Positions 52,769 to 62,543 of a stretch of DNA of 64,000 bases are shown here, in pieces. Where the stretch lies: contig JAKLFP010000007.1 of NCBI GenBank assembly GCA_022711115.1, positions 1 to 64,000 of the forward strand. Reading direction: 5' to 3'. A program made the translations under genes and the position numbers. The stretch's first letter is position 1; every line of letters begins with the position of its first letter. The stretch is from Candidatus Omnitrophota bacterium. Its GTDB lineage: Bacteria; Omnitrophota; Omnitrophia; Omnitrophales; Aquincolibacteriaceae. Under the pieces are notes generated by a model that had not been told where the DNA came from, searched no databases, and worked only from the letters and a program-made list of their open reading frames with translations.

Positions 52769-54358
52769 CTATGCTACCGACTGCTGCCACAGCGAGGCTT
52801 GCTTCCGCCAATCGAGCTCGTTTGAAATGTGGCGGGTATTTCTTTCGGTGATCTTGGCGAGGCTTGCATTTTCCGCGGTAAGGATATTCTCTTGGACGCT
52901 TGGACAGAGATATAGCAGATTAACGATCTGGTACAACCGGTAAAGATTCATGCCAGTCCACCCGGCGATCTGTTTTAAATCCTTGGCCCGTCCATCAGCA
53001 AGCATGCCGTGGATCTGATGAGCGAGAAAGAGCTGTTGTCTTATGATGGGCTCGCTTTTAAAATCCGGCAGGCCCGATGCGGGCACTTTGTTTTTCAACT
53101 CGGTAAGCGGCAAATCATACTCGTACTTCCGCACATCTCCTTTAAGATAAATCCTGAGCTTGCCCTTGGCGCCGTCATAATCAATTTCGCGGACCAGCTC
53201 ATTGATGACTGCCATTTGTTTCTCAAACGGCAGAGTTTTCCAATTCGAATCTTCAAATCGCTTATCCTTCGTAATCCGCGTCAGTAGTTCCAAACACTTC
53301 TCTTCAATCGCAGTCGCGCTGATAGTTTTAGTCGGACAGGCCTTCCGGTTGAGTTTGATTGCGTTGAGACAAATATAGTAACGGTATTTATAGTTCCCTT
53401 TTCTTGCATAACTGTGGGTCATGCTGGTGCCGCAAGGAGTGCACCTGAATAAACCGCTCAAGAGCCCCGGGAACTTCCGGTTCTTTGAGGTGCCGCGCAC
53501 TCTTCCGTTCTGCTTCAGGATCGCTTTCGCCTGATTAAAAGTTTCCTCACTGACGATGGCCTCGTGCAATCCCGGATAAATCTTCCCGTCGTATTTGACC
53601 TTGCCTGCATAGACGACATTATTGAGGACCCATTGGATATTGGTGTTCTTGAATTCAACACCGCCAAAGACCTTGTGCTTGTCCTTATGAGCTTTGGTTC
53701 GATGTCCTCGTTCGTTCATGATCCTTGCGACTTCAAGCAATGATTTCTTTTCGATGTAGAGCTTGAAGATCATCTGGACAAGCTCCGCGCCTTTAGGGTT
53801 TATTACGAGTTTTTTGCATTCAGAATCGATGTCATAACCCAATCCGGCCCTACCGCCGATCCAGCGGCCTTTCATTCGGGCCGCGGCCATCTTGTCTTTG
53901 GTGCGTTCGCTGATCATTTCGCGTTCAAATTGGGCAAACGAAAGCAGAATGTTGAGCGTTAGCCTTCCCATGGACGTGTTGGTGTTAAAGTGCTGCGTAA
54001 CAGAAACGAAAGCAATCTGCTGCTCTTCGAAGAATTGAAGCAGCTTTACAAAATCGAGTAATGACCGTGACAGCCTGTCGACTTTGTAGACGACAACGCA
54101 GTCCACCTTTTTGGCTTTAATGTCCTCGAGTAGCTTTTGAAGAGCTGGGCGATCTATCGTGGCTCCCGTAAAACCGCCGTCATCATATTTATCGGGAAGC
54201 GTAACCCATCCCTGACTTTGCTGACTACGGATGTAATTTTCGCCTGATTCTCTTTGAGCATCCAGAGAAGAGAATTCCTGATCCAGTCCTTCGTTCGTGG
54301 ACTTTCGCGTATAAATTGCGCACCGGATTGATTGTTTTATTTCTTTATCGTTTCCCAT
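52769..54358 (-). CDS. Large serine recombinase
   Basis: The product is 529 residues. The N-terminal resolvase domain has catalytic Ser20 in YTRKST, then DGGFTGATIDRPALQKLLED and VVYKVDRLSRSLLDFVKL, and ends with ERTKDKMAAARMKG. The recombinase domain follows, with a zinc ribbon (CTPCGTSM and later CLN, CPTK) and a C-terminal coiled-coil. This is the large serine integrase fold, which performs site-specific recombination between att sites. The gene overlaps the upstream DUF2924 gene by 14 bases. No other mobile-element genes remain, so the element may be decayed or the locus domesticated. Confidence 0.93.
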   Translation of the reverse strand: MGNDKEIKQSIRCAIYTRKSTNEGLDQEFSSLDAQRESGENYIRSQQSQGWVTLPDKYDDGGFTGATIDRPALQKLLEDIKAKKVDCVVVYKVDRLSRSLLDFVKLLQFFEEQQIAFVSVTQHFNTNTSMGRLTLNILLSFAQFEREMISERTKDKMAAARMKGRWIGGRAGLGYDIDSECKKLVINPKGAELVQMIFKLYIEKKSLLEVARIMNERGHRTKAHKDKHKVFGGVEFKNTNIQWVLNNVVYAGKVKYDGKIYPGLHEAIVSEETFNQAKAILKQNGRVRGTSKNRKFPGLLSGLFRCTPCGTSMTHSYARKGNYKYRYYICLNAIKLNRKACPTKTISATAIEEKCLELLTRITKDKRFEDSNWKTLPFEKQMAVINELVREIDYDGAKGKLRIYLKGDVRKYEYDLPLTELKNKVPASGLPDFKSEPIIRQQLFLAHQIHGMLADGRAKDLKQIAGWTGMNLYRLYQIVNLLYLCPSVQENILTAENASLAKITERNTRHISNELDWRKQASLWQQSVA

Positions 54359-54815
54359 TGGTTAGTCCGAAGAAAATGAACCCATTCCAGTGATCACCCG
54401 TAATTGCTTTAGCGACAGCGCTTAGGTTCTTATAGATGGCGCCTTGGTACTCAAAGCCGTTCTCCAGCACCTTTACCTCGATCCGGTTCCCTTTGTACGT
54501 TTTGATAATCAAAGATCCGGGCATGGGCAGACGGACATCGCGGCCGACCGTAGTTTTCCCCGTCTTGGTTTTAATAGCGATTTTGTTGACTGGATCATAA
54601 GTTCGAATCAGTTCCTGAATCCTGTTCCTTGCCCCAGTCGAGATGCCGCCTATCGCCTGTTCTTGTAACCGGTATGCCAATTTTCGGATCAAAAAGATTC
54701 GGTTTCCTGGCACAGCCTTGTCGCCAAAAAGCTCCCTGTATTGCTCCAGTAACTGCGCGGTCTCGCTTGTTTTTAAGGTCTCCATTTGCTCTTCGATAGT
54801 GTCCAGTTTCGACAT
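54345..54815 (-). CDS. DUF2924-type protein, partner of the recombinase
   Basis: The product is 156 residues. The sequence (LFGDKAVPGNRIFLIRKLAY, then RLQEQAIGGIS; later GSLIIKTYKGNRIEVKVL, GFEYQGAIYKNLSAVAKAIT, GDHWNGFIFFGL) matches the DUF2924 family, which in many genomes sits beside large serine recombinases. The GFxYxGxxYxSLSxxAxxxTG segment resembles a DNA-binding restriction-associated element. AGGAGG precedes its ATG, and the recombinase start lies inside its 3' end. Role in the recombination is unknown. Confidence 0.82.
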   Translation of the reverse strand: MSKLDTIEEQMETLKTSETAQLLEQYRELFGDKAVPGNRIFLIRKLAYRLQEQAIGGISTGARNRIQELIRTYDPVNKIAIKTKTGKTTVGRDVRLPMPGSLIIKTYKGNRIEVKVLENGFEYQGAIYKNLSAVAKAITGDHWNGFIFFGLTNGKR

Positions 54816-55032: not shown

Positions 55033-58000
55033 ATGATGCAAAAAATAATCGCTTTCCTTTTAAGTATTCAGATGTGCTTTTTCTGTGTCCCGGTGCTTCC
55101 ACTTTCTTATGCCGATGAGTTCTCGGCAGGTCAAACTCAAAGCACACCGACAAAAACTCTTGAGGATGCTGCGAAAGAAACACCTCCTCCGCCGCAGCCG
55201 CCTGTCCCACCGGACAGTTTAACGCCACCTCCGGCAATTTCTCCGCCGACACCTAAAGGATTGACTCAGGTAACGAACGCTTCCGAGAATCAAGTAAAAG
55301 ATGATGCTCCGATAACGCCAAATCTTTATCAGGTGAGAAGTGCTCCTGAGAATATCTCAGCAGTATTTTTAGCGGTGCAGGCCGGTCAACCGATTAATAG
55401 CTTTGATTATGTATCGAGTAGCTCGGGACAGCATAACCATTTAGGCACCATGCTGCAGGGACTCGAGATAGTTTTTCGGTATAACGGAGCAAACTACACT
55501 GTCTTTGCTGACAATTCAGGGGAATGGATCTATGACTATTCCAGCAACCAGTGGACATCCAAAGCGGAGGTGATGTCTGCATTTGCTACACGTTTGCTGG
55601 ATCGAACAAGCATTACGAGCCAATCGTATCAAACTATGGTTCAATGGGATTATAATGTATCGGGAGGCATTACTCGACTGGCCTTGCCTTATACAGAAAA
55701 CTTCATCAATGGATATACTCCCGAACAGCGGGAAGTGCAGCAAACGGCCTTACAAGCGGCCCTGACTCAGGCTTTCAATCTTGATCCGACAGATTTTTTT
55801 GACAAAGTGAGCTTGGTTCAGCACATCATCATCAGCCCGTATTCAAGCCCCGGGCAGGGGCATTTTTATCCTTCCAGCGGATCGATCATCGTTAATGCCA
55901 ATAATCCGCTAACAAACGAATTCCTGATCCCGCTTATTTTCCACGAAGCCGCGCATTTACGTGATTACGGCAATATCTATCCGAGACCCTTACCTTTTAA
56001 TTTTGCATATTCAGAAGCTAACGCATATTTAGAATCCGCTCTCTGGAATCTGCGCTTGGGACGAATTAACGAATATAGTTTTATGAAATTTGTTGCAGAC
56101 CGTATTCCGGATAACAATTATAACAATGATATAGCAATGGCTTTTACCAGTACGCCTTCACTTATTGCGAATGCCACGGCGCCCTATCAAGTGGCTTTAT
56201 GGGGTCTTGCGCAGAACGATATCGGCGAGCCTCTCTATATTTCCAGCGCTCCTGGATCAATGGAGGGACATCAAGGCTACAATTTTATTTTTGAATATAG
56301 CGGTACGAATCGCAGCATCTTTGTGAGTTCGACCGGTGATTGGGCCAAGTTCGGTGCTCAGACATACGAAGGAATTGGCGCGATCATGATCTCGATCCAG
56401 GCTCTTCAGCAGCAGTTGATGACCAAGGGCGATACGATCATGGGGCTCATGAATCAAACATTTACCGCTCTATTTGGCCAGATCAATATTTCGGGCTCTG
56501 TCTTCACGAATGCCATATTGACGATCAATGGGGTTACGGTTGCGCCGCCGTCGGATCCGGACACGTTGCTATCGTTCACAACAATTTTGAAAATACTATG
56601 GGATGGGAAGCAACTTCTTGCCGGGGCTTATGACAATATTGTTTTATTGACTGCGGCCGAGATACAAAGAGCCATTGAAATGGGTCTTGAGGGTTATCTT
56701 AATGAGACGATGTCTTTTAATTCATCGGACCTTTATTCTCTTAGCCGAGCCGAGCTCTTAGCATTACAAACACAATTAACATCACAAAATCAGCAAATGG
56801 ATGCAGGGATTGTGTGGCACACGAACGCTCAGACGGCTCACACGCTTCAAATCGGTGTCTACAGTTTGAAGACGGTTATTGCATTGCAGTCTGCGTTCGG
56901 CGGTGGCTATGGCATCAGCATTCAGCATGATGCAACCACTGGTCTGCCGTATATCCGAATTGTAAGTAACAGTACGCCATCTTCTGGTGGATTTGTGTCG
57001 GCGGAATTTTCGCTCAATCCTGATGGAAGTTTAAATACGATTCGGAGTATTAATTATGAGGGTATCTCTTCGGTCGACGGACAGTTTTTATTTGCTGGAA
57101 TGAAACTTTTGCCTCCTGCTACTTCCTCGGATCAGAGCGGTCTGGTTCGCCTTACTCAAGTTCAAATTTATAGCGTCGAACCTTCAGGAGTTTTGCATAT
57201 CGGATGGCAAGGTAAGTTTTATAAGATCTACCGTGTAAACAGCACGGTGACCTATCAAGACGAAACGCCATTACTGCTTGCGATGCAGAAATATTATGGT
57301 GCGAATAATATTCCGCAGAATTTCCGCGTCGAGATTTCAAACTCTTATGAGGTCAATGTCTATATTTCTGAAATACAAAATAGTGTTATGACGGATGTGG
57401 CAAATATAACATTCATGACTTATGGCGGACAATACAACGTCGAGTGGGTTCGGGATATGAAGACCCACACTGCAGCCCAATTCATGTACCAGGCCGGTTA
57501 TGTGCTTTCCGACATTTGGCGTACGACTTGCAATGATTTCGGTTGCAGAGGCGGGTATTGGAGAGGGCAAATCCATAATATCGCTTTTGATGTCGGTGCC
57601 AATAGTGGTACGGCCAATGTCACATCGGTCTTATCGCCGAACTGGCTTACATGGACAGATCCTACATTAGTTCATTTCACCAACATTGCTGATCTTTTGA
57701 AACAGGCAACGGACATGGATGTCCCTGTCGCGGCGTTGAACACACTTTCATCAATTCAACGCTCGATAGGAAGTTTGACCTTCAATTATTCGTATGTAGC
57801 AGGCGGGTTCAAGGCGATTGTTACCAATCCGAATGCAATTGTTGGCGGCTTAAGCCGGATGGAGTTTGTGGTCAAACAGGAGGGAACGATTGATACTGCG
57901 ACTTTGCAAGTGATTTATAAAGGTGCGATGGCGAATTTAACCCCGAATGGGCAATTATTATTTTCCGGCATAAAGCTCATACAGCCAACTACGACGGATG

Positions 58001-61000
58001 CAAACGCGCTCATTCAAATGACCCAAGTAACGGTAAAAAATATCGAAGTTTCTGGTACGATTCATTTCAGCTTGAGTGGTTTGTCCTATAAGGTTTATCG
58101 GGACGGCGGCCAAGTTATTCTTGAACATGAGATCACCATGCCCGACGGCACCGTGCTCGATATTAAAGAAATCAGCAAGACTGAAATGCTGGCTCTTATA
58201 CCGACAATTGTGAATGTTGCGGATCAAGCCGCCGCAATTGCTGCGATCAATGCTTTGCCCGCCGGCGCTGCATTTTACCGCACAAATATCATCCAAAATG
58301 GCGTTCTGCAGTTTACTCAATATGAATGTGCTCCAGCAAAACGGGATTTTAGCAAAATGCCTCAAGCCATGTATATGCCAGGAAATGCCATGCCGAATCC
58401 GGGGATTGTTCAGACCTTTGTTGCAGGAAGCGCGTCTCCGTTTTTTGAGTCCAAGATGTTCTTTGGACAAAACAATGCTCTTCTGAGCGTTAATTCCATC
58501 GAGAATACTCAAACGAATCCGCCGCCGGTGGCTGCATTGGTGAAAACTTTCAAACTGGATGGTACAGCTTATGCTGACATTTATTACGATACCCAAGGCA
58601 ATGTGACGAGTGTTGTTTATTATCAGTACGATGCCAATAATCGCTTGAGCCAGATGATCTCGAAGACGGCTGCGGGTATAACGTTATGGACGCAGCAATA
58701 TTATTACACGGGCACTAACACCACACCCGATTATTCTAAACGAACTTATGCAGATAGCTCCGTAGAATATTACAACTCCCTAGGAGATCTCTTTCTAGCC
58801 AGGACGAGTTCAGGGATTTCCAGAGCTGCTTTTAATGATATGAGATGGAGATACATGTTTGGCGATTGGGACAATAACGGTGTTTTTGACAATGAGGAAG
58901 TTCAAGATTTGGATCACGACGGTATTTTTGGCGAGCCGGAGGATTGGCCGAGAAATGATTACAATGACTTTTTAGCGACAGGATACACGCCTCAACAACT
59001 TGCCAATCAAGCCAAATTTTTGGATGCGATTATTTCAAGAGCTATGCAGGCCGGATCAGCAAATGGCGCCCTGGATGAAGTATTGAGGATATTATCCAAT
59101 GTAAAACATATTGTCTTTATCGACATGCCTCCCGAACTAGGCGGCGGTGGTAATCCTGAGGAAGGCGTTTTGCTTATCAATAATTGGGATGTGGAAGCAT
59201 GGACGAATGCCATTAGAGACGGGAAGACCGTTAAAGCGCACTTGCTTGTTGACGGAGATGTTATGACCATGATGCACGAGGTTGAGCACGCGATTTATTT
59301 AACGGCGACGTGCCCTGATATTTGGAGGACAGGGTCAGAGGAAGGCCGGATTTGCGGATTGAATTCGGAAGTGGATTCGCATCTTTTAAGTGCCCGATGG
59401 GATGGTTACCTTGGATTACCACAGTTCTGGATAAACTGGAGCAGTTTTATGGCGGATCATATTCCTGACAACGGATATGACAACCCCATTGCGAATAATT
59501 TGACAGATACTTCCACAATGGCGCCTTTCCTGAATGGCAGCGAATTTGTCAGCGCGCATATTGACGCCACAGTTGACTGGATTTATGTTCCAAGCCTTCC
59601 TTATCCTGCTTTCGAAAATAAGTTTGGGACTTCATTGACTGGATATAAGGTTATCTTTAAAAAACCTGATCAGACGCAAGTAACCTTGTTTGTAGATGAA
59701 AGCGGCCAATGGATTAAATATAACGGCTTTTGGTTTGAGCGGGCTGCCAGCAGCGACGAAATCAACTTAAGGCAATTAGATTCTTCAGGACGTCTATTTA
59801 TTTCAACTCAGTATCACATTCCTGAAATAACTGAGTTAGGCACTCCCTCCGGACCTCCCGAGCTTTTATGGACCCAGCAGTATTTCTACACCGGTGCTAA
59901 CACCACGCCGGATTATTCGATACGAACCTACGCGAACGACAATGTCGGGTTTTATGATGCAGCTGGAAATTTTATATGTGATATTGCAGCTTTACTTAAT
60001 CGGTCGAGCATCACGCCAGCGGATTTTGACCGGTTAAAGGTTTCTAATCCGCCTCTTCAGCAAATCGATTACTTTCCCGCAGCCATGACATACTCGCAAT
60101 TCAAGGACGAGACGATCTCCTCACAAGATAAAAAGGCTCTAAAACAGCTTTTAACGCTGGCTATTGCAACCAATCCTGCGCGGTTTAAGCAAATCATGCA
60201 GTCCGCAGGCAGGATCGTCATTAAACCTTATACCCCCATCACCCTAATTCCTAGCTGGGAATTCAATTCTGCGGCGGTTGTTTTAGATAACGCGCTTTAC
60301 CTTTACTATAATTCCGGAGACTTGTCGGAAAGTGGGCTGAAAGCAGCGCTTCCTCTTGTCATGCGAGAACTTGCTCATTTTTATGATGCCGCCCAGCACA
60401 TTTCCAATCCGGTTTATTGGCCGGCTTCCGCGGAAGAATACGAAAATCAAGAGCAAGTCAATTGGATGAAACTTTTGAATTTTCCGAATACTTCCGTCGA
60501 CCGTGACCAGTGGATCACAAATCGGATTTCGGATAACAATTACACCGGCTTAGCCGCGCAATATATCACCGGAACTCTGCATGATACCAACCCAGCCACG
60601 GGCGCCGTTTATACCTACAGCGAAGCCTTTTCAGCGATTATGGCGCCTTACCTGAGCGCCGAGAGCTATATAGGCCAATATTACACTATCAATATTAACG
60701 ATCTCATTTACACGAGCAGCATCCGAACGTCGCTTCCCAGAGGTGCTGACACCGTTCAGGGTTACAACATTACACTTAACCGAAGAGGAACCGCAACAAA
60801 ATATACTGTTTTTGTTGATCTTTCCGGAGAATGGATTTACTACAACAGCCAGTGGACGCCAAATACACAACGGATCGCCGAGCGCCTTTTGAATCGGGCC
60901 AGTATCTCAAGTACACAATATTCAGATATGGCGAGTTGGGATGCTAGAGTGACAGGTGGTTTTGTTCGCTTGCCTGCAACCTACGCTGCTTATCTCGGCT

Positions 61001-62112
61001 CTTCGGCTACTTCCCAGCAGATTGCTGACTTAAAAGCGGCCTTGACCCAAGCTTTCAATCTTGATCCTGTTGAGTTTGTCAACAAAATGAGTTGGGTTCA
61101 GCATATTATTATCAGTCCTTACACAGGACATGGCAGCGGCCATTTTTATCCTTCCAGCGGAGCCATTATCCTCAATGCCAATGATTATTCTGTGGTGCCG
61201 ACGCAATACATGTCTGAATATCTTATCGAACTTATTTTCCATGAAGCCACGCATTTGAGAGATTTTAATGGGAACGTTTATCCTGCTTCGCGGGATTTTC
61301 GAGTTTCCGAAGCAAATGCTTACGCGGAAATTGCTTATTGGCAAAATTTAACTACACCGATTTATCATGATTTCACATGGGAACAAGGATATAACGGAAA
61401 TAAATTTACTGCCGACCATATTCCCGATAACGATTACAACAACATTGTTGCACAGGCAGCCACGAGCAATCCTGAATTATGGAATCAAGCGACAGCTCCT
61501 TTGGTAAGTGCGATGAATTTTCTCAATTCAAATGTCGCTTCTGTTGACTGGAAATATTTTTCTAGCCCGGCTGCAACCTTGAACAAGTCCGGCACGAATA
61601 TCAGCGGCTACACATTTACTTTCCAAAAACCGGATCTCAGTACGATCAACGTTTTTGCCGATCTGACAGGGCAGTGGATCAACTATCAGGGCACGTGGTA
61701 TCAACTCCAGGGCACTATCTTTGTTCCCGCCGTAGCGATGAAATCTGCCAGCCAAAGTGCCGCCACAGCAGTGACCTCAAAAACCTATACCGCGACGTCA
61801 CAAGTTGCGGATCTTCAACCGAAAGCGCTTTCTCCTCTCCCTCTGGAAAGCGCGGCGAAGAGTTCTTTGAATGTGGCGACTCCCACGGTGCTTTCTTCAG
61901 CGCTGCTTCAAAGTTCTCCGATTCGTTCATCGTATTTAAGAAAGATCAAATCAAAGCCCGCGTTGCGTTCGTCCGTAAGTCCAAAATTCCAAACAAACGC
62001 AGCGAGCGCCTTGCGAGCTTATCAACAGGAGAGCTCTCTTAAAGCTTCACCGCTCTTTGGATTTGAAGAAAGCATGGTTTTCGAAAATATTTTGAAAGAA
62101 CTAACACAATAA
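55033..62112 (+). CDS. Giant secreted protein with repeated zincin-like metalloprotease domains
   Basis: The product is 2359 residues with a signal peptide at about 1-28 (IIAFLLSIQMCFFCVPVLPLS) and a Pro-rich linker (45-70). HExxH occurs at 304-308 (HEAAH), 1415-1419 (HEVEH) and 2070-2074 (HEATH). Each is followed 23-31 residues later by a Ser-Glu (E328, E1446, E2093), as in gluzincins. A fourth copy at 1778-1782 reads RELAH and is likely inactive. The first and last zincin units share long identical words (ALTQAFNLDP, QHIIISPY, GHFYPSSG). Between them are five GxWIxY beta repeats, two copies of a second beta module (about 622-736 and 914-1023), a Tyr-rich YD-like stretch (about 1190-1250) and a DxDNNGxxD calcium-type loop (1278-1305). 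Probably an extracellular protease or peptide-binding protein; no known family matched. Confidence 0.85.
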   Translation: MMQKIIAFLLSIQMCFFCVPVLPLSYADEFSAGQTQSTPTKTLEDAAKETPPPPQPPVPPDSLTPPPAISPPTPKGLTQVTNASENQVKDDAPITPNLYQVRSAPENISAVFLAVQAGQPINSFDYVSSSSGQHNHLGTMLQGLEIVFRYNGANYTVFADNSGEWIYDYSSNQWTSKAEVMSAFATRLLDRTSITSQSYQTMVQWDYNVSGGITRLALPYTENFINGYTPEQREVQQTALQAALTQAFNLDPTDFFDKVSLVQHIIISPYSSPGQGHFYPSSGSIIVNANNPLTNEFLIPLIFHEAAHLRDYGNIYPRPLPFNFAYSEANAYLESALWNLRLGRINEYSFMKFVADRIPDNNYNNDIAMAFTSTPSLIANATAPYQVALWGLAQNDIGEPLYISSAPGSMEGHQGYNFIFEYSGTNRSIFVSSTGDWAKFGAQTYEGIGAIMISIQALQQQLMTKGDTIMGLMNQTFTALFGQINISGSVFTNAILTINGVTVAPPSDPDTLLSFTTILKILWDGKQLLAGAYDNIVLLTAAEIQRAIEMGLEGYLNETMSFNSSDLYSLSRAELLALQTQLTSQNQQMDAGIVWHTNAQTAHTLQIGVYSLKTVIALQSAFGGGYGISIQHDATTGLPYIRIVSNSTPSSGGFVSAEFSLNPDGSLNTIRSINYEGISSVDGQFLFAGMKLLPPATSSDQSGLVRLTQVQIYSVEPSGVLHIGWQGKFYKIYRVNSTVTYQDETPLLLAMQKYYGANNIPQNFRVEISNSYEVNVYISEIQNSVMTDVANITFMTYGGQYNVEWVRDMKTHTAAQFMYQAGYVLSDIWRTTCNDFGCRGGYWRGQIHNIAFDVGANSGTANVTSVLSPNWLTWTDPTLVHFTNIADLLKQATDMDVPVAALNTLSSIQRSIGSLTFNYSYVAGGFKAIVTNPNAIVGGLSRMEFVVKQEGTIDTATLQVIYKGAMANLTPNGQLLFSGIKLIQPTTTDANALIQMTQVTVKNIEVSGTIHFSLSGLSYKVYRDGGQVILEHEITMPDGTVLDIKEISKTEMLALIPTIVNVADQAAAIAAINALPAGAAFYRTNIIQNGVLQFTQYECAPAKRDFSKMPQAMYMPGNAMPNPGIVQTFVAGSASPFFESKMFFGQNNALLSVNSIENTQTNPPPVAALVKTFKLDGTAYADIYYDTQGNVTSVVYYQYDANNRLSQMISKTAAGITLWTQQYYYTGTNTTPDYSKRTYADSSVEYYNSLGDLFLARTSSGISRAAFNDMRWRYMFGDWDNNGVFDNEEVQDLDHDGIFGEPEDWPRNDYNDFLATGYTPQQLANQAKFLDAIISRAMQAGSANGALDEVLRILSNVKHIVFIDMPPELGGGGNPEEGVLLINNWDVEAWTNAIRDGKTVKAHLLVDGDVMTMMHEVEHAIYLTATCPDIWRTGSEEGRICGLNSEVDSHLLSARWDGYLGLPQFWINWSSFMADHIPDNGYDNPIANNLTDTSTMAPFLNGSEFVSAHIDATVDWIYVPSLPYPAFENKFGTSLTGYKVIFKKPDQTQVTLFVDESGQWIKYNGFWFERAASSDEINLRQLDSSGRLFISTQYHIPEITELGTPSGPPELLWTQQYFYTGANTTPDYSIRTYANDNVGFYDAAGNFICDIAALLNRSSITPADFDRLKVSNPPLQQIDYFPAAMTYSQFKDETISSQDKKALKQLLTLAIATNPARFKQIMQSAGRIVIKPYTPITLIPSWEFNSAAVVLDNALYLYYNSGDLSESGLKAALPLVMRELAHFYDAAQHISNPVYWPASAEEYENQEQVNWMKLLNFPNTSVDRDQWITNRISDNNYTGLAAQYITGTLHDTNPATGAVYTYSEAFSAIMAPYLSAESYIGQYYTININDLIYTSSIRTSLPRGADTVQGYNITLNRRGTATKYTVFVDLSGEWIYYNSQWTPNTQRIAERLLNRASISSTQYSDMASWDARVTGGFVRLPATYAAYLGSSATSQQIADLKAALTQAFNLDPVEFVNKMSWVQHIIISPYTGHGSGHFYPSSGAIILNANDYSVVPTQYMSEYLIELIFHEATHLRDFNGNVYPASRDFRVSEANAYAEIAYWQNLTTPIYHDFTWEQGYNGNKFTADHIPDNDYNNIVAQAATSNPELWNQATAPLVSAMNFLNSNVASVDWKYFSSPAATLNKSGTNISGYTFTFQKPDLSTINVFADLTGQWINYQGTWYQLQGTIFVPAVAMKSASQSAATAVTSKTYTATSQVADLQPKALSPLPLESAAKSSLNVATPTVLSSALLQSSPIRSSYLRKIKSKPALRSSVSPKFQTNAASALRAYQQESSLKASPLFGFEESMVFENILKELTQ

Positions 62113-62471: not shown

Positions 62472-62543
62472 ATGACAGTCCCACCCAGCCCATTAAAATT
62501 AATTATGGTTGGGGCGGCCATCATTTTTCATCCTAAAGAATAA
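62472..62543 (+). CDS. Possible 23-residue ORF with Shine-Dalgarno
   Basis: ATG 62472 is preceded by AAGGAAA at 4-8 bases. The peptide MTVPPSPLKLIMVGAAIIFH, then PKE, is short and hydrophobic in the middle. It could be a small membrane peptide or a translated leader for the metallophosphoesterase gene 50 bases on, but may be chance. Confidence 0.2.
   Translation: MTVPPSPLKLIMVGAAIIFHPKE

What the first reader, a model, noticed from the sequence alone, without database searches (positions are those of the whole stretch)
55033..62112. Giant secreted protein with three HExxH zincin-like domains plus a degenerate fourth
HExxH occurs at residues 304, 1415 and 2070. Each lies in a hydrophobic helix (IFHEAAHL, MMHEVEHA, IFHEATHL) and is followed by a Ser-Glu motif after 24, 31 and 23 residues: SEANAY, NSEVDS, SEANAY. 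This is the zinc-site layout of gluzincins. Several metalloprotease domains in one 2359-residue exported protein is an architecture I do not recognise, and a random match of the full pattern three times in hydrophobic helices is improbable. A processive or multi-substrate extracellular protease is one possibility; protease-like binding modules is another.
Basis: partly seen in the sequence, partly recalled or inferred. Interest (0 to 1): 0.8.

Follow-up and report, generated by a model that had tools for sequence, protein, structure and literature searches.

The report
Exported protein with four metalloprotease-type domains
An uncultured Omnitrophota bacterium encodes a very large exported protein that carries four copies of one unfamiliar zinc-protease domain, three with an intact active-site signature and one broken, in a patchwork of modules shared with other giant proteins of that group; it is probably a multi-headed digestive or predatory surface enzyme.

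Summary
One 2359-codon ORF (55033-62112, +) encodes an exported protein with HExxH at 304, 1415 and 2070, each followed by a conserved Glu (328, 1446, 2093). A fourth copy (about 1660-1870) reads RELAH: the first zinc-ligand His is lost, by at least two base changes (codon CGA). No shuffle in 20,000 reaches three HExxH. The four domains are homologous, and a 2462-aa paralogue has three more HMM-supported copies. Across ten divergent copies the only invariant or nearly invariant columns are His, Glu, His and the distal Glu, which argues for selection on a catalytic gluzincin site. AlphaFold2 of domain 4 (moderate confidence, pLDDT 67.5) gives a two-helix zincin layout; Foldseek's best PDB matches are minigluzincins (selecase, jannalysin) and other HExxH proteins, none at E<=0.001. 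No Pfam or NCBIfam family matches significantly, so this is an unassigned zincin family, mostly found inside giant Omnitrophota ORFs. A sister protein on the same scaffold carries a calpain-type protease instead, which favours 'scaffold plus protease heads' over mere binding modules. Activity, substrate and final location are not shown. New variant of a known kind.

The parts
55033..62112 (+). 2359-aa exported multi-domain protein
   Evidence: single ORF, putative weak Shine-Dalgarno GAGGGG upstream
55033..55113 (+). Sec signal peptide-like N-terminus, residues 1-27 (...PLSYA|DE), followed by a Pro-rich linker to about residue 95
   Evidence: sequence; residues 1-79 align with the N-terminus of the paralogue (40% id, E 1e-7)
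55393..55542 (+). small beta module copy 1 (residues 121-170, YTVFADNSGEWIYDYSSNQW)
   Evidence: repeated in the window protein and the paralogue
55591..56232 (+). zincin domain D1 (residues 187-400)
55942..55956 (+). HEAAH, residues 304-308; distal Glu E328 at 56014-56016
56236..56352 (+). small beta module copy 2 (residues 402-440)
56383..56802 (+). mainly helical module, residues 451-590, shared with the paralogue (55%) and a 1169-codon frame of G019
56836..57273 (+). scaffold repeat R1 (residues 602-747)
   Evidence: 29% id to R2, E 2.5e-15
57283..58101 (+). scaffold region 751-1023, 58% identical to the paralogue; also in the calpain-bearing sister protein
57706..58140 (+). scaffold repeat R2 (residues 892-1036)
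   Evidence: found in large ORFs of related genomes
58597..58842 (+). YD/RHS-like hairpins (residues 1189-1270)
   Evidence: Pfam RHS_repeat E 0.0093, below cut-off; 57% to the paralogue
58864..58944 (+). Asp-rich, possibly Ca-binding stretch before D2 (WDNNGVFDNEEVQDLDHDGIFGEPEDW)
   Evidence: sequence only
58960..59622 (+). zincin domain D2 (residues 1310-1530)
59275..59289 (+). HEVEH, residues 1415-1419; distal Glu E1446 at 59368-59370
59632..59739 (+). small beta module copy 3 (residues 1534-1569)
59866..60009 (+). YD/RHS-like hairpin, second copy (residues 1612-1659), about 50% identical to 1218-1266
60010..60642 (+). degenerate zincin domain D3 (residues 1660-1870)
60364..60378 (+). RELAH in place of HExxH, residues 1778-1782; E1801 kept
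   Evidence: codon CGA
60727..60852 (+). small beta module copy 4 (residues 1899-1940)
60883..61572 (+). zincin domain D4 (residues 1951-2180), 44% identical to D1 over the longer shared stretch
   Evidence: AlphaFold2 model
61240..61254 (+). HEATH, residues 2070-2074; distal Glu E2093 at 61309-61311
61606..61704 (+). small beta module copy 5 (residues 2192-2224)
61705..62109 (+). low-complexity C-terminal tail ending FGFEESMVFENILKELTQ, weakly like tails of two calpain-bearing sister proteins

Best explanation
The gene encodes a Sec-exported, modular surface or extracellular enzyme of an Omnitrophota bacterium. Beta-rich and YD-hairpin modules form a long scaffold that holds four homologous small gluzincin-type zinc-peptidase domains. 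Three (D1, D2, D4) keep HExxH plus the distal Glu and most likely cleave proteins; D3 has lost a zinc-ligand His and most likely only binds substrate or keeps spacing, as inactive repeats do in other multi-domain peptidases. The likely role is degradation of proteins on or near other cells (nutrition, predation or epibiosis), with the sister protein on the same scaffold using a calpain-type cysteine protease. Shown: ORF, homology of the domains, motif conservation, loss in D3, zincin-like model of D4, shared scaffold with a Peptidase_C2 protein. Inferred: zinc binding, catalysis, crossing of the outer membrane, ecological role.
For: Four homologous domains. Ten divergent copies retain only H, E, H and distal E as (nearly) invariant columns, including the catalytic Glu that a purely structural zinc site would not need. 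Model of D4: beta-sheet, helix 118-140 carrying HExxH, helix 150-168 carrying Glu; Foldseek PDB best hits are selecase/jannalysin, ChlB HExxH, SprT-type DPC protease, PprI, ArdC, and viral SprT/IrrE/M48 proteins. Best PDB sequence hit 3e11 'predicted zincin-like metalloprotease', E 0.0051. Paralogue with three more HMM-supported copies. Sister protein with shared scaffold and Peptidase_C2, E 2.1e-20. Five secretin-domain proteins in the genome, so outer-membrane export is possible.
Against: No significant match to any curated peptidase family. The D4 model is only moderately confident, several Foldseek superpositions are poor (rmsd 4-9 A) and none in the PDB reaches E<=0.001; the D2 model failed. 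No substrate, expression or zinc data. Some related giant ORFs are not obviously secreted.
Confidence: 0.62

Rival explanations
1. Polymorphic-toxin-like effector: the YD/RHS-like hairpins deliver or cage metallopeptidase toxins (like Tox-MPTase or HopH1 domains) that act inside a target cell.
For: YD-like hairpins precede D2 and D3 and zincins of the paralogue; zincin toxins with RHS repeats are known (PMC3482391); Peptidase_M91 (effector) is a weak hit of the paralogue, E 0.04.
Against: Only one or two hairpins per site, not a long RHS array; several zincins spread through the chain rather than one C-terminal toxin; no recognisable immunity gene or secretion-marker domain next to it; RHS hit below Pfam's cut-off.
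Confidence: 0.13
2. In-cis maturation protease: the zincins cleave the giant protein that carries them, or its giant neighbours, into working pieces.
For: The same zincin family sits mostly inside giant ORFs of Omnitrophota (7 of 9 hits with E<=1e-4 lie in open frames of at least 1797 codons; also frames of 9879 and 14634 codons in this genome), some with repeated linkers that could be cleavage sites.
Against: The window protein lacks those RSE[MVA]R linkers; four zincins in one chain are more than self-cleavage needs; no cleavage data.
Confidence: 0.1
3. Protease-fold binding modules: the domains are adhesins that kept the fold but lost or never used catalysis.
For: D3 is degenerate; giant Omnitrophota ORFs have been proposed as adhesins (PMC10066038).
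Against: Nine of ten divergent copies keep all four active-site residues while the rest drifts; a sister protein on the same scaffold carries an unrelated protease.
Confidence: 0.12

Closest known systems
Minigluzincins / selecase-jannalysin and SprT-Wss1-type small gluzincins
   Same: HExxH helix plus Glu on a following helix, small three-strand core; best Foldseek PDB hits
   Different: Those are small, mostly cytosolic enzymes with one such domain (own knowledge); here four copies lie in one exported 2359-aa chain, and sequence similarity is not significant
Tox-MPTase / HopH1 (Peptidase_M91) metallopeptidase toxins of polymorphic toxin systems (PMC3482391)
   Same: Small zincin domains in RHS/YD-bearing exported proteins
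   Different: Those are toxin domains typically preceded by RHS repeats; here several internal copies, short hairpins, no immunity gene seen
Tandem-domain peptidases of animals such as carboxypeptidase D and somatic ACE (own knowledge)
   Same: Several homologous metallopeptidase domains in one exported chain, with an inactive copy in carboxypeptidase D
   Different: Different families (M14, M2) and kingdom; no sequence relation claimed or tested
Giant ORFs of Omnitrophota (PMC10066038, PMC12057145)
   Same: Same phylum, giant modular proteins with few annotated domains, proposed in predation or adhesion
   Different: This gene (7 kb) is below their 20-kb threshold; a recurring metallopeptidase family is not mentioned in the passages read
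Pfam DUF6782 (PF20573, putative metallopeptidase)
   Same: Weak sub-threshold hit around the HExxH of D1 (E 0.015)
   Different: Profile comparison with Omnitrophota DUF6782-like proteins aligns only 14 columns round HExxH, probability 7%

Membership tests
Zincin/gluzincin superfamily | HExxH on a helix | tested here: met
   D1, D2, D4; predicted helix in the D4 model; D3 not met (RELAH)
Zincin/gluzincin superfamily | Glu third ligand on a downstream helix | tested here: met
   Column conserved in 10 of 10 copies; lies on helix 150-168 of the D4 model
Zincin/gluzincin superfamily | His, His and Glu side chains converge on one zinc | not testable with these tools
   No coordinates returned; indirect support from Foldseek
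Zincin/gluzincin superfamily | Zinc-dependent proteolysis | not testable with these tools
   Needs protein
Minigluzincin (selecase/jannalysin) family | Significant structural or sequence match | tested here: inconclusive
   Foldseek E 6.4e-3, probability 0.99, TM (target) 0.48, rmsd 8.7 A; no significant sequence match
DUF6782 (PF20573) | Match above the gathering score of 27 bits | tested here: not met
   15 bits; profile comparison probability 7%
Peptidase_M91 / HopH1-type effectors | Match above the gathering score of 25 bits | tested here: not met
   14.7 bits in the paralogue, not listed for P0001
Polymorphic toxins with RHS repeats | RHS array followed by one C-terminal toxin domain | tested here: not met
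   One or two hairpins per site, RHS_repeat E 0.0093 below cut-off; zincins are internal and multiple
Polymorphic toxins with RHS repeats | Adjacent immunity gene | tested here: inconclusive
   Neighbours are a recombinase, DUF2924 and a metallophosphoesterase; no known immunity family seen, unknown ones not excluded
Omnitrophota giant ORFs | ORF longer than 20 kb | tested here: not met
   7.1 kb, but the zincin domain recurs in much larger ORFs of the phylum and of this genome

The most novel reading that the evidence does not exclude
The domain defines a new gluzincin family dedicated to the giant proteins of Omnitrophota: embedded in chains of 2,000 to over 14,000 residues, it cuts them (or their neighbours) into working units, so that these bacteria run a polyprotein economy otherwise best known from viruses.
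Probability: 0.1. Interest if true: 0.85.

Novelty: new variant of a known kind. Interest (0 to 1): 0.52.

Why it matters
Giant proteins of Omnitrophota are proposed weapons, coats or adhesins, but few annotated domains have been recognised in them. A recurring, probably catalytic zinc-protease domain and a sister protein with a calpain-type protease give a concrete, testable biochemical activity for that class. It also adds an unassigned family to the zincins and a bacterial case of several peptidase domains in one chain with one copy decaying.

Tried and rejected
DUF6782 membership: rejected, resemblance limited to the HExxH helix. NCBIfam and PHROGs: nothing significant. AlphaFold2 of D2: pLDDT 47.6, not used. 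The first HExxH site of the paralogue (residue 369) was kept out of the conservation argument because the HMM does not recover it. One-base sequencing error as the cause of RELAH: rejected, codon CGA. Shared C-terminal sorting tail: suggestive but only two invariant columns in three sequences.

Full report
What is there. The ORF at 55033-62112 (+) encodes 2359 residues. It stands alone: upstream, on the other strand, lie a DUF2924 gene and a large serine recombinase; beyond them GluRS, GlnRS and signal peptidase I; downstream a metallophosphoesterase, with a terminator-like hairpin at 62505 (such matches are no commoner than in shuffles). The N-terminus looks like a Sec signal peptide followed by a Pro-rich linker and is homologous to that of a paralogue.

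The motif. No shuffle in 20,000 had three HExxH. Self-comparison shows four homologous domains: D1 (187-400), D2 (1310-1530), D3 (1660-1870) and D4 (1951-2180). D3 is the degenerate one: Arg1778 replaces the first His, with codon CGA, at least two changes from either His codon.

The paralogue. The same genome (G000, 2.5 Mb, 95.8% complete) has a 2462-aa protein on another contig (L015). It has HExxH at 369, 1465, 1975 and 2288; the last three are recovered by the domain HMM, the first is not, and I do not count it. Next to it, a 1087-aa protein shares the scaffold region (residues 746-1027 of the window protein, 51%) but ends in a calpain-type Peptidase_C2 domain (E 2.1e-20). Two unrelated protease folds on one scaffold argue that proteolysis is the business of this family (inference).

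Conservation. In an alignment of ten domain copies (four from the window protein, three from the paralogue, three from other genomes) the only invariant columns are Glu119, His122 and Glu142 of D1 numbering (E305, H308, E328), and the only nearly invariant one is His118 (H304; Arg in D3). An 11-copy version, which includes the uncounted paralogue site, gave a mean pairwise identity of 20%. The alignment was made without a structure, but aligners favour such motifs, so this is strong rather than absolute evidence.

Structure. AlphaFold2 of D4 with a four-row alignment: mean pLDDT 67.5, pTM 0.62, three strands, then helix 118-140 with HExxH and helix 150-168 with Glu. Foldseek against the PDB: the leading hits are selecase, ChlB HExxH, PprI, jannalysin, SprT-type DPC protease and ArdC, nearly all HExxH proteins, best E 6.4e-3. 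Against viral models: one match at E 1.6e-4 (unnamed), then IrrE, SprT and M48 proteins among the best. The D2 model failed.

Families. Pfam gives only sub-threshold DUF6782, M91 and SprT-like hits; NCBIfam and PHROGs nothing significant; PDB by sequence one weak hit, 3e11, a predicted zincin-like metalloprotease (E 0.0051). DUF6782-like proteins of the phylum share only the HExxH helix with it. I therefore call it an unassigned family within the zincins, closest in fold to minigluzincins.

Organism and spread. A genome of the same family as the window's (G018, contig of 420,119 bases) corresponds to a named record, Candidatus Omnitrophota bacterium RA.bin90, so the window is from Omnitrophota. 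With the wider profile, 11 of 383 sampled genomes of the phylum have a match at E<=0.01; of nine with E<=1e-4, seven lie in open frames of 1797 to 4527 codons. Two more copies lie in frames of 9879 and at least 14,634 codons in the window's own genome. The domain is thus mostly a component of giant proteins, patchily distributed. Spread outside the phylum could not be tested.

Mechanism. My best reading is a scaffold of beta and YD-hairpin modules presenting three active small gluzincins and one pseudo-copy outside the cytoplasm, for digestion of proteins on or near other cells. Giant ORFs of this phylum have been proposed in predation, adhesion or cell-wall attack (PMC10066038; PMC12057145). 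Secretins are present, so passage through the outer membrane is possible but not shown. Rivals are a toxin-like effector, self-processing and non-catalytic binding; none is excluded by experiment.

Verdict. Real, well supported as a multi-zincin protein, with function inferred. Not a new kind of chemistry; new as a family and as an architecture. Interest 0.52.

Noticed in passing
G000 contig C12 263181-292817 (-), L055/L056: A 9,879-codon open frame in the window's own genome carries 19 copies of the short motif RSE[MVIAT]R, apparently at unit junctions (0.05 expected from shuffles); it reads like a chain of fused proteins. Four HExxH sites.
   Followed up: partly
G012 contig C9, L038: A 4,527-codon frame in a related genome has the same RSE[MV]R-type linkers, an internal Tat-like signal (MTRREFISRMAGFMGLAAGMALAP) and a zincin homologous to the paralogue's third copy.
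   Followed up: partly
G000 contig C12 1-43904 (+), L089-L091: An open frame of at least 14,634 codons runs off the contig start; zincin-like sites (HEVQH, HESIH) lie near its C-terminal end.
   Followed up: partly
L015 3290-6553 (-): 1,087-aa exported protein on the same scaffold with a calpain-type domain; relatives of the calpain part occur in cyanobacteria, Gemmataceae, Verrucomicrobia and Gracilibacteria records.
   Followed up: partly
L016 4418-6784, L017 1-1404, L018 2-2986: Three more members of the modular family end at contig edges, so the assembly broke within these repetitive genes and the true number of copies may be higher.
   Followed up: no
window 62040-62109; ends of L015 3290-6553 and the 1489-codon frame of L042: C-terminal tails with a weakly shared motif (F..E.L.Y..VL), possibly a sorting signal.
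   Followed up: partly
window 52769-54815 (-): Large serine recombinase next to a DUF2924 gene directly upstream of and divergent from the giant gene.
   Followed up: no
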